Source of the DNA: Thermococcus bergensis
GTDB taxonomy: Archaea > Methanobacteriota_B > Thermococci > Thermococcales > Thermococcaceae
NCBI RefSeq assembly: GCF_020386975.1
Contig: NZ_JABFNK010000003.1
Coordinates: forward strand, 248,001-312,000
Length of the DNA stretch: 64,000 nucleotides
Direction: 5' to 3'
The notes beneath the pieces were generated by a model that ran no database searches, was not told where the DNA came from, and saw only the letters and a program-made list of their open reading frames with translations. Of this stretch, positions 2,757-45,304 are shown one piece after another (position 1 is the first letter of the stretch; each line of letters starts with the position of its first letter). Both the position numbers and the translations under genes were made by a program.

Positions 2757-5835
<3,079 letters not shown>

Positions 5836-7633: not shown

Positions 7634-8050
7634 TTACCCCCGAGGGGTCCCCTTTCGGGTTTCCTCGGGAGCGCACCTTTTGTGACCCGGGCTGGAGGGC
7701 GGGGTTCATTGTGGGTGCTTTGCACCCTGTCCCCCCGACGCCGCCGTCTTGGCGCCCGGGTTTTGTCGCGCCCTGTTCGGGCGCTCCACCCTATAGGGCG
7801 AAACCCCCCCAATGAAAAATTTTTGCAAAGCCTTGAGAGCCCATATTTTTAGCAAAGAGGCTGTTAAAATCGAGTTTCATTATCACGGATTTTAAACATT
7901 TAAATGATAAAAAATAGACGATAAAAACAACAAACTATTTCTTAGTCGATTCTTAGTTGAAACCCATATCTGGACTTCACCAAAAACCAAGCATTATACC
8001 ATGACTCAAGAGAAACCCCCAACCGAAATAAAAAGAAGGCATTAAAAACA
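7634..8050. promoter_or_regulatory. rRNA leader and promoter region, and prs downstream region
   Basis: This stretch holds no gene. From 7634 to about 7812 it is a GC-rich transcribed leader of the rRNA operon; the apparent ORFs there are not credible. A candidate BRE/TATA on the minus strand is GCAAAAATTTTTCA, about 7814-7828. The match to the TATA consensus is weak, and AT-rich alternatives lie up to about 7910. From 7830 to 8050 the DNA is AT-rich and I see nothing else. Near 8031-8036 the minus strand carries a T5 run that probably ends the prs transcript. Confidence 0.4.
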
Positions 8051-38864: not shown

Positions 38865-38927
38865 TAAGATGATGAGGCCGAGGACACCCGAGGAGCCCGA
38901 TGAGGACTCTTCGCTTCGCTGATTCTT
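38865..38927 (+). ncRNA. C/D box guide sRNA (second of three)
   Basis: C box ATGATGA (38869-38875); D' is probably the variant CCGA (38888-38891); C' is the degenerate CGATGAG (38898-38904); D box CTGA (38919-38922). The second guide contains TCTTCGCTTC, identical to 3645-3654 and so complementary to 23S rRNA; the D+5 rule points to the G opposite 3651. No convincing target is seen for the first guide. Confidence 0.75.
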
Positions 38928-42219: not shown

Positions 42220-43088
42220 GGGCGTGTTTAGTTTCACCCCCTGTTATTTAAACAGTATTTGACTCTGAGGAGGATTTTCAGACCATAACACATTACCCCA
42301 AGCAGGATTCGGGTTACAGTAGTCTTTTTCAGAAAACAGGGGATCCTACTGCCAAACCACGTTGTAAACGCACCCCAGAACCCCTCATGAGGATTCCTAT
42401 GCCTGTACTCTTCTTCAGAAAACACTCTATCTCTCCTCTTACTACCAAAACCACCTGGAGGGTTCTTAGTTTTCTTAACAATCGGCCGATAACCCTTTTC
42501 CACCACAGTGTTCAGAACTTTCTTTGAATCATAAGCCCCATCAGCATAAAAATTCCCAGAACCCTCCGGCAGGAGTTCAATCAGCTCGTTCTCAGAAGTT
42601 GTGATCCTCACAGCAACCGGATACAGTAAACCCGGCAGGATTCTCGTTATTGCCTGAACTTCTATCCTGCCCTTTTTTTATTTGTGATAATGGTTGAGTC
42701 TGCTTGAGTGCTGGCGTAGGGTAATTTCTGGAGTTTTTTCAGGAGGTGGTTTGTCAGTTCTTCGAGGTTCAGCTTTTTCTCCCAGTTGTGGAGGGTTGAG
42801 TAGTGAATGTTTGCTCCGAAGAATTTTCTGCCGTAGTGCTGGGCGTCTCTGAGGGGTAGGTTGTAGTATTGTTTAAAGAGGAGTATTGCCAGTATTGTTT
42901 TTACTGGAAATTTTTTGGATTTTGGCAGGTTCTTCAGCTTTCCTTCTGATTCGAAGTCTGCTAAAACGTCAAGAATTGTGAATGCCACGCTTTCAGGGTC
43001 TTTGAGTCTGTGATCCCATCTGGGGATCACGGCAACCACCTGAAAGAATTCGGCAAAAACCCTAATAAAGGTTACTATAAACACGCCC
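42220..43088 (-). mobile_element. Insertion sequence with DDE transposase (about 869 bp, IS5/IS4-like)
   Basis: Terminal inverted repeats of at least 11 bp (GGGCGTGTTTA at 42220-42230, complement at 43078-43088) are flanked by the direct repeat CTGTGGTGCT (42210-42219 and 43089-43098). It holds one transposase split at a T7/A7 run. The ends are intact. I cannot name the IS group with certainty. Confidence 0.82.
42234..43030 (-). pseudogene. DDE transposase, two ORFs joined by a -1 frame change at A7
   Basis: The first ORF runs from the GTG at 43030 (AGGTGG upstream) to a stop after TNKKRAG, with the first catalytic Asp in TQADSTIITNKK. The second frame continues KGRIEVQAITRILPGLLYPV, then FYADGAYDSKKV with the second Asp, and RHRNPHEGFWGAF with the Glu. 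The frames join by -1 slippage on A7 (complement of 42673-42679), exactly as in the IS982-type gene at 10.1 kb. A one-base deletion is the simpler alternative. Confidence 0.75.
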
Positions 43089-43190
43089 CTGTGGTGCTCA
43101 GGCAACCGAGTGTTAATCACCGTTCATCCAGTGCCGGTTTCATCATAGCATAGCATAAGTTTATAAGCGACTTCCCTTGAAAATCTTTCG

Positions 43191-43811: not shown

Positions 43812-43844
43812 CTCTCTATTCTTTCAATCTGGTAGGTGAGAGAG

Positions 43845-45149
43845 ATGGACAGAATTCAGCGAGTTAAGGGAACAAGAGATCTGCTTCCCGAGGATATGGC
43901 AAAGAGAAGATACGTGTTTGAGAAAATAAGGGAAGTTTTCGAAGCTTATGGGTTTAAGGAGATACTCACACCAACTTTCGAGTACACAAAGCTCTTCGAG
44001 TTGCGGAGCGGGGAAGAGGTTGTTGAGCAGTTATACGCTTTTGAAGACAAAGGTGGAAGAAACATCGCCCTCAGACCTGATTTGACTTCAAGCGTTGCGA
44101 GACTTTTTGTGAACTATTTCCAAACCGCACCGAAGCCAATAAGATGGTATTACATAGCGAACATGTTCCGCTACGAGGAGCCGCAGAGTGGAAGGCTGAG
44201 AGAGTTCTGGCAAGCGGGAGTTGAGCTTATAGGCTCTCCAAACATAGAGGCTGATGCCGAGGTTATCGCACTTTTCATAGAAAGCTACCTCAACACAGGC
44301 TTGAGAGAATTCACAGTCAACATTGGGGACAGAGTCATTTTGGATGAGTTTGCGAAGATGCTCGGCGTGGAAGACGATATCGGGCTCATGAGGCTGATAG
44401 ACAAAAAAGACAAGATGAGCAGAGAGGACTTCACAAAGAGCCTAAGAGAGTTTGGGCTCGGTGAAGAAGAGATAGAAAAGGTCTTCGCCCTAATAGAACT
44501 GAAGGGCAAGCCCGATGATGTTTTACCAAAAGCGTACGAGCTTTTCGAAAGTGAAACTGCAAGAGAAGAACTGAAGAAGATTGAAGAGCTTTTTGAACTG
44601 CTGAAAGCCTATGGCGTTGAGAACTACGCATTGGTAGATTTCGGAATAGCCAGAGGGTTTGACTACTACACCAGCATAGTCTTTGAGGCAATAGCTCCAA
44701 ATGACCTTGGTATCGGATCGATAGGCGGCGGGGGAAGATACGACAACCTTATAGAGGTCTTCGGAGGAAAGCCAACCCCCGCAACGGGTTTTGCAATTGG
44801 TATAGAAAGGCTAATCCCAATCTTGGAGAGCAAAGGACTTCTGCCAGAGCTTAAAGTTGGAAGTGACGTCTTCATTGTGTACATAGGAAATGAGCTTGAG
44901 ATAAAGAAAAAAGCCATAGAGATAACCCAGATGCTGAGAAAGGCAAAGATTAAGGCAGAATATGATATTCAAAGAAGAAAACTAAGCAAGGCGCTTGACT
45001 ACGCCAACAGCATAGGCGCGAGAGTTGTGGTGATTCTCGGAAAGAGAGACCTAGCCGAGGGGAATGTCACAATAAGAAACATGGAAAGCGGAGAGCAAAT
45101 AACGATCCCAATAGAAAAGACCGTGGAAGAAGTGAAAAAGATGCTGTGA
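43845..45149 (+). CDS. hisS: Histidyl-tRNA synthetase
   Basis: This 434-residue class II synthetase shows motif 1 around YGFKEILTPTFEY, motif 2 NMFRYEEPQSGRLREFWQAG, the histidine-binding segment ARGFDYYTSIVFEA, motif 3 TGFAIGIERLIPIL, and a C-terminal anticodon-binding domain. The ATG at 43845 has TAGGTGAGAG upstream. Its TGA stop is inside the C box of the C/D sRNA that follows. Confidence 0.96.
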   Translation: MDRIQRVKGTRDLLPEDMAKRRYVFEKIREVFEAYGFKEILTPTFEYTKLFELRSGEEVVEQLYAFEDKGGRNIALRPDLTSSVARLFVNYFQTAPKPIRWYYIANMFRYEEPQSGRLREFWQAGVELIGSPNIEADAEVIALFIESYLNTGLREFTVNIGDRVILDEFAKMLGVEDDIGLMRLIDKKDKMSREDFTKSLREFGLGEEEIEKVFALIELKGKPDDVLPKAYELFESETAREELKKIEELFELLKAYGVENYALVDFGIARGFDYYTSIVFEAIAPNDLGIGSIGGGGRYDNLIEVFGGKPTPATGFAIGIERLIPILESKGLLPELKVGSDVFIVYIGNELEIKKKAIEITQMLRKAKIKAEYDIQRRKLSKALDYANSIGARVVVILGKRDLAEGNVTIRNMESGEQITIPIEKTVEEVKKML

Positions 45150-45199
45150 TGAGCAAACCCGTCGCTGAAGGGTGATGAAAGGATCGACTAGCTGAACTT
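45142..45199 (+). ncRNA. C/D box guide sRNA (third of three), overlapping the hisS stop codon
   Basis: C box GTGATGA (45146-45152), guide, D' CTGA (45165-45168), C' GTGATGA (45172-45178), guide, D CTGA (45192-45195): all four boxes are canonical. The first guide contains CAAACCCGTC, identical to 2858-2867 and thus complementary to 23S rRNA, pointing to the G opposite 2864. The second guide has only a 7-nt match. The sRNA is probably processed from the hisS transcript; T tracts follow at 45197-45230. Confidence 0.87.
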
Positions 45200-45304
45200 T
45201 TTCTTTACCTCAAATTTGTTTTTCTTTCTCTCAAGACGCCATTTTTCTATTGCTCGAACAAAGGGGCACCTTGCCCTCCAGTAATTAAGGAGCTTCCTCA
45301 GCAT
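45188..45304 (-). CDS. Small basic protein (38 aa), hypothetical
   Basis: The frame runs from the ATG at 45304 to the TAG at 45188-45190 and encodes a very basic peptide that starts MLRKLLNYWRARCPFVRA and ends EVKKKFS. GGTGAT lies 5 nt before the ATG, and a TATA-like TTTAAACTTTTATCG lies near 45335-45350, so it has its own signals. Its 3' end is antisense to the end of the C/D sRNA. I know no family for it; an RNA-binding or ribosome-associated role would suit the charge but is speculation. Confidence 0.55.
   Translation of the reverse strand: MLRKLLNYWRARCPFVRAIEKWRLERKKNKFEVKKKFS

What the first reader, a model, noticed from the sequence alone, without database searches (positions are those of the whole stretch)
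45142..45199. C/D sRNA whose C box contains the hisS stop codon
The TGA of hisS (45147-45149) lies within the C box GTGATGA, and all four boxes are canonical. The sRNA can only be made from the mRNA or from an internal promoter, so its release would cut the hisS message at its stop codon. The first guide matches 23S at 2858-2867.
Basis: partly seen in the sequence, partly recalled or inferred. Interest (0 to 1): 0.5.

Follow-up and report, generated by a model that had tools for sequence, protein, structure and literature searches.

The report
Guide RNA overlapping hisS stop codon
A small RNA that guides chemical marking of the ribosome shares the stop codon of the neighbouring hisS gene, an arrangement already known in archaea, and comparison with relatives suggests that one of its two guides aims at a different ribosomal site in this genus.

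Summary
A C/D box sRNA with four canonical boxes lies at 45142-45199, and the hisS TGA is inside its C box. The motif is absent from 60 shuffles of the window, and a model of the family matches 67 of 94 Thermococcales genomes. Stop codons in box C are a described class (review passages credit Tripp 2017).

The hisS link is not needed for the sRNA. All 16 g1 and g5 copies parsed share it; the 39 other parsed copies (g3, g4) do not, and 35 of those lie convergent to a GMP synthase subunit A-like gene. I read it as a housekeeping 23S guide, probably released from the hisS 3' end, not a hisS regulator.

Two additions. The D guide fits 23S U1472 in most copies. In g1, guide positions 2 and 11 are C in 10 of 10, which weakens the 1517 duplex and perfects the 2947 one, in the hairpin after helix 98, which is excised in P. 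furiosus. A genus-specific target is plausible but unproven, its direction is unrooted, and expression is inferred throughout.

The parts
45142..45199 (+). C/D box methylation-guide sRNA (approximate ends)
   Evidence: R1 model match 45143-45199; ends not mapped
45146..45152 (+). box C, GTGATGA
   Evidence: TGATGA invariant in the 15 aligned copies
45147..45149 (+). TGA stop codon of hisS, inside box C
   Evidence: same place in 16 of 16 g1 and g5 copies parsed
45153..45164 (+). D' guide GCAAACCCGTCG; 10 pairs to 23S with n+5 G2947, 8 pairs with n+5 G1517
45165..45168 (+). box D', CTGA
45172..45178 (+). box C', GTGATGA
45179..45191 (+). D guide AAGGATCGACTAG; 12-nt duplex to 23S, n+5 U1472
45192..45195 (+). 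box D, CTGA, followed by a T-rich tract (possible archaeal terminator, inferred)
43836..45149 (+). hisS, histidine--tRNA ligase, whose end overlaps the sRNA 5' end
45188..45304 (-). convergent 38-aa ORF, TAG stop (45188-45190) inside the D guide; GGTGAT upstream resembles a ribosome-binding site (recalled)
   Evidence: no Pfam or NCBIfam match
2858..2867 (-). 23S site paired by the D' guide (our 23S nt 2944-2953), hairpin after helix 98, taken as H99
4288..4297 (-). alternative D' target, 23S nt 1514-1523, n+5 G1517 (8 pairs with this genome's guide, 10 in most relatives)
4331..4343 (-). D target, 23S nt 1468-1480, n+5 U1472
2885..2925 (-). 41-nt segment equal in length and border bases to helix 98 excised in P. 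furiosus

Best explanation
It is a housekeeping C/D box sRNA that guides 2'-O-methylation of 23S rRNA. Shown by sequence: the four boxes, the overlap with the hisS stop codon, conservation of boxes and guides across the order, and pairing to 23S. Inferred: it is transcribed as the 3' tail of hisS mRNA, bound by L7Ae at the C/D and C'/D' motifs, trimmed out and assembled with Nop5 and fibrillarin. The D guide directs methylation of U1472; the D' guide directs it at G2947 or G1517 in this genus and at G1517 in g3/g4. The hisS overlap exists because UGA is built into box C, so a gene end can be shared cheaply; it is not a control device.
For: Four-box motif in none of 60 shuffles. Model R1 matches 67 of 94 genomes, 60 of 74 good ones. 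The D guide pairs (Watson-Crick or G-U) over positions 2-11 with the U1472 site in 48 of 55 parsed copies, through variants TCG, CTG and CCG that all pair; that site reads the same in 21 of 21 genomes. The same sRNA occurs in different contexts with its guides kept: at the hisS stop in 10 g1 + 6 g5 copies, convergent to a GMP synthase subunit A-like ORF in 35 of the 39 other parsed copies (two of the 35 tested by profile), with no hisS match in those 39 loci, about 1.5 kb each side. Literature: 25% of archaeal C/D genes carry an upstream stop codon, almost half of those in box C, and only 20% show a TATA-like motif (passages of PMC7994747 citing Tripp 2017).
Against: No expression data for this organism; ends not mapped. 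The Rfam score is below gathering. 27 of 94 genomes, 14 of them good, give no match; the search used strict filters. Seven of 55 D guides have a mismatch in positions 2-11. Position 1 of the D' guide is unpaired at both sites in the genomes compared. The overlap is kept in 16 of 16 copies of two genera, which a regulatory reading would also predict.
Confidence: 0.8

Rival explanations
1. Regulatory overlap: L7Ae binding or release of the sRNA cuts or stabilises the hisS message at its stop codon and so links HisS level to sRNP supply.
For: Stop in box C in 16 of 16 g1 and g5 copies parsed. L7Ae represses its own mRNA through a k-turn in the leader in Sulfolobus and binds k-turns in other mRNAs (passages of PMC5539422).
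Against: The family lives away from hisS in g3/g4. 3' overlaps had neutral or slightly negative reporter effects (passages). The passages seen describe k-turns in leaders and coding sequence, none at a stop codon.
Confidence: 0.1
2. The D' guide still acts at G1517 in this genus as in g3/g4, and the 10-pair match at 2947 is a by-product of two drifting guide positions.
For: The 1517 core ACGGGTT is in 21 of 21 genomes read, and 8 central pairs remain in 6 of the 7 g1 genomes compared there. Drift of two edge positions by transitions is cheap. 3 of 150 shuffled guides find a 10-pair run by chance. Position 11 also varies outside g1 (T 33, A 10, G 1, C 1 of 45).
Against: Position 2 is C in 10 of 10 g1 and T in 45 of 45 others; position 11 is C in 10 of 10 g1 while its neighbour, position 12, varies. 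Predicted duplex for the window guide: -11.6 at 1517, -18.3 kcal/mol at 2947. Weakening this: G078 has a mismatch at position 4 and G082 a G-U at position 5 at 2947.
Confidence: 0.4
3. The sRNA has its own promoter inside the hisS 3' end.
For: ATAGAAAA at 45111-45118 sits 23 nt before 45142, the TATA distance, with 6 of 8 matches; g5 hisS copies have ATTGAAAA, 7 of 8, in 6 of 6.
Against: The best match falls to 5 of 8 in 5 of 10 g1 copies. Review passages give only 20% of archaeal C/D genes a TATA-like motif. No shuffle control was run for this scan.
Confidence: 0.2
4. Chance boxes or a dead copy.
For: Below the Rfam gathering score.
Against: Motif in none of 60 shuffles, order-wide conservation, guides paired to rRNA.
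Confidence: 0.02

Closest known systems
Archaeal C/D box sRNA genes overlapping the 3' end of an ORF with the stop codon in box C (Tripp 2017, as told in passages of PMC7994747)
   Same: stop codon UGA inside box C, no clear own promoter, two guides with rRNA matches
   Different: nothing in this arrangement; here an antisense ORF also ends inside the same sRNA, itself a kind of overlap reported in T. kodakarensis
Rfam RF00095 snoPyro_CD and the sR families
   Same: box layout, length, 36-bit similarity
   Different: guide sequences differ; no gathering-level match to any Rfam family at this place
sR5 (RF01304)
   Same: in another Thermococcales genome (L041) sR5 lies just after the hisS stop, 11 nt between
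   Different: different guides; does not overlap the stop codon

Membership tests
Archaeal C/D box methylation-guide sRNA | boxes C, D', C', D in order, with guides of about 12 nt | tested here: met
Archaeal C/D box methylation-guide sRNA | guide complementarity to rRNA covering the fifth base upstream of D or D' | tested here: met
   two candidate sites for D'
Archaeal C/D box methylation-guide sRNA | expressed ~50-60 nt RNA bound by L7Ae, Nop5, fibrillarin | not testable with these tools
   no RNA or protein-binding data
Archaeal C/D box methylation-guide sRNA | target base 2'-O-methylated | not testable with these tools
Stop-codon-overlapping C/D sRNA gene (Tripp 2017 class) | stop codon of the upstream ORF within the sRNA | tested here: met
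RF00095 snoPyro_CD | score at or above the gathering score of 45 bits | tested here: not met
   36.0 bits
mRNA-regulating k-turn bound by L7Ae | L7Ae binding changes expression of the host mRNA | not testable with these tools
   none

The most novel reading that the evidence does not exclude
The D' guide of one conserved sRNA family has different targets in sister genera: 23S G1517 in g3/g4, and G2947 in g1 (Pyrococcus by inference), in the hairpin after helix 98, 21 nt from the new 5' end that helix-98 excision leaves on the circularly permuted 23S. g5 guides can pair with both, so a dual-target guide may have been resolved two ways: g3/g4 lack the second site because that stem is flipped, and g1 has two guide bases that favour it. 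In g1 the sRNA would then act on this hairpin's folding beside the helix-98 cut and link methylation to 23S permutation.
Probability: 0.35. Interest if true: 0.6.

Novelty: new member of a known kind. Interest (0 to 1): 0.33.

Why it matters
The overlap itself adds one well-conserved example to a described class. The comparison adds more: one sRNA gene seen in several gene neighbourhoods with its guides kept, ORFs on both strands ending inside it, and a clean two-base guide difference that predicts a genus-specific methylation site, which deposited P. furiosus data could test directly.

Tried and rejected
A TATA scan (consensus taken from passages of PMC6640164) to decide between mRNA-derived and own promoter: inconclusive. 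Best scores out of 8 in the 39 copies away from hisS: 8 once, 7 four times, 6 in 21, 5 in nine, 4 in four; in the 16 hisS copies: 7 in six (all g5), 6 in five, 5 in five.

Another guide to G1517 in the 13 g1 genomes, by exact pattern: one match (G080, L223) with no C box visible before it; a guide with any base changed would be missed. Guides fitting the flipped site, in 94 genomes: matches in 25, all g4; the reversed control pattern matched in 12 genomes; the matches were not examined for C/D boxes.

Rooting. The 23S tree (21 genomes, unrooted) groups g5 with g3 (support 0.996) and splits g5 (0.412), while the hisS tree of 16 sequences puts the g5 loci with the g6 locus and the g2 locus with g1. 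So I do not claim which guide state or which gene neighbourhood is older. T at both guide positions is the commoner state, and the degenerate g6 copy also has T at both, but neither roots the tree.

The named hisS search gave 79 loci, mostly bacterial; I read the 3' ends of 20 of the 22 rows titled Thermococci, Thermococcus or Thermococcaceae.

Papers. Two look-ups by DOI meant for Lui 2018 and Tripp 2017 (DOIs recalled) found nothing held; Tripp is cited only through review passages. Ten paper searches (open-licence papers only, listings seen) showed no title or abstract on this sRNA, its hisS link or its guide difference; full texts were opened only where cited. Gaspin 2000 (46 Pyrococcus sRNAs) was not opened and may list it.

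Dropped rows: 67 genomes matched; I read 59; the 8 not read as family copies (G002, G035, G047, G052, G053, G064, G088, G093) had only weak or partial matches, except that a G093 match was looked at. Of 59, four (G022, G027, G031, G030) did not fit the guide pattern and are outside the 55. Second, weaker matches in a genome were not counted. In one search, 29 of 30 loci showed the 2947 site; G053 did not.

Full report
Where it is. The window lies in a Thermococcales genome (G000, five contigs). I call its genus (g1) Pyrococcus by inference only: Rfam families named for Pyrococcus match (Pab19; snoPyro_CD below threshold), and the 41-nt segment before the D' target has the length and border bases reported for helix 98 in P. 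furiosus.

Boxes C, D', C' and D stand at 45146-45152, 45165-45168, 45172-45178 and 45192-45195, and the hisS TGA (45147-45149) is inside box C. A strict four-box pattern occurs once in the window and in none of 60 dinucleotide shuffles. Rfam gives only a sub-threshold match to snoPyro_CD, 36.0 bits against 45.

The family. A sequence-only model from 15 copies matches 67 of 94 Thermococcales genomes at E 0.001 or better: 9 of 9 in g3, and 10 of 13 in g1 (the other 3 are 61 to 79% complete). Some of the 67 rest on weak partial matches that may be other sRNAs. I read the best match in 59 genomes; 55 fitted the guide pattern: 10 g1, 6 g5, 9 g3, 30 g4.

Context. In the 10 g1 and 6 g5 copies the hisS stop is the first TGA of box C, 16 of 16. 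In the other 39 copies no hisS is found within the loci, about 1.5 kb each side, and 35 lie convergent to an ORF ending like GMP synthase subunit A (two tested by profile). In 8 of these 39 an upstream ORF, OsmC-like in the one tested, reads through box C and its stop begins 7 nt after the start of TGATGA. In 20 of 55 an antisense ORF stops on the TAG opposite CTA in CTA(G/A)CTGA: the 38-aa ORF in five g1 genomes, the GMP synthase-like ORF in 13, a TauE-like protein in one (tested), and a 66-aa ORF in one that may be spurious. So genes on both strands end inside this RNA, and it does so with different genes. In three g5 genomes looked at, a + strand ORF starts 5 to 10 nt after box D. Locus L037 has hisS and the antisense ORF with no sRNA between them; whether that genome has the sRNA elsewhere was not tested. 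In g6 a degenerate copy stands by the antisense ORF; hisS is not in that locus (read by eye).

Guides. The D guide pairs (Watson-Crick or G-U) over positions 2-11 with 23S around U1472 in 48 of 55 copies; that site reads the same in 21 of 21 genomes compared. For the D' guide I compared 21 genomes with both sRNA and 23S (7 g1, 3 g5, 5 g3, 6 g4). The G1517 site, 45 nt from U1472, is identical in 20 of 21; G004 has one base changed. Outside g1, 9 of 14 guides give 10 Watson-Crick pairs there, three give 9 plus one G-U (G013, G012, G018), and two have a mismatch (G004 at position 10, G023 at position 11). In g1, position 2 is C in 10 of 10 (T in 45 of 45 others) and position 11 is C in 10 of 10 (others: T 33, A 10, G 1, C 1), while position 12 varies. 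The g1 guide then pairs over 10 Watson-Crick bases with the site of G2947 in 8 of 10 genomes; G078 has a mismatch at position 4 and G082 a G-U at position 5. In g5 the same site allows 8 pairs plus two G-U. In the g3/g4 genomes read the hairpin stem is flipped (CGGG...CCCG for CCCG...CGGG in the g4 loci) and the guide cannot pair through positions 5 and 6. Two g2 genomes have the g1-type site. Predicted duplex energies in kcal/mol: window guide -11.6 (1517) and -18.3 (2947); g5 guide -14.2 and -16.5; g3/g4 guide -15.8 at 1517. By this measure g5 already leans slightly to 2947, so the contrast is sharpest between g1 and g3/g4. Which state is older is not settled, because the two trees disagree and neither is rooted.

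Where G2947 is. It is nucleotide 21 after the 41-nt helix-98 segment, in the next hairpin, which I take to be H99. In P. furiosus that helix is excised and the 23S is circularly permuted, so this stretch lies near the new 5' end of the molecule (PMC7758197: abstract, sections 10 and 13, and part 1 of 2 of section 14 read). Any link between the guide and this processing is my inference.

How it most likely works. A guide sRNA released from the 3' end of the hisS transcript directs methylation at U1472 and at G2947 or G1517. Release from the message is inferred from the overlap and the lack of a strong TATA box, and the scan for the latter is weak. That the overlap controls hisS is not supported: the family is kept elsewhere without it, and review passages report neutral or slightly negative effects of 3' overlaps on a reporter (PMC7994747, passages). 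I had no expression data.

Known or new. Stop codons in box C are a described class. T. [quoted passage not shown] The genus-specific guide difference was in none of the titles and abstracts listed by ten searches; older Pyrococcus lists were not readable. It rests on sequence alone.

Noticed in passing
window 45188-45304 (-): 38-aa ORF with GGTGAT upstream, open in 8 of 10 g1 genomes (in-frame stop in G074 and G082); DNA matches in g2, g5 and g6; no Pfam or NCBIfam match.
   Followed up: partly
L041:3013-3066: sR5 (RF01304, 52.2 bits) starts 11 nt past the hisS stop in another Thermococcales genome, so the hisS 3' end hosts different C/D sRNAs.
   Followed up: partly
window 38865-38924 (+): sR45 starts 8 nt past the end of a 266-aa ORF.
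   Followed up: no
window 42234-43120 (-): Two adjacent ORFs that look like pieces of one transposase, beside tRNA-Tyr; read by eye, not searched.
   Followed up: no
window 7681-7784 (-): H/ACA RNA Pab19 upstream of the 16S gene, on the same strand.
   Followed up: no
L124, L128 and L131, after box D: In three g5 genomes a 98-109 aa ORF rich in hydrophobic residues starts 5-10 nt after box D; no Pfam match for the one tested.
   Followed up: partly
G093 C5:62089-62120 (L023): Degenerate copy of the sRNA with a broken box C beside the antisense ORF in g6; read by eye.
   Followed up: partly
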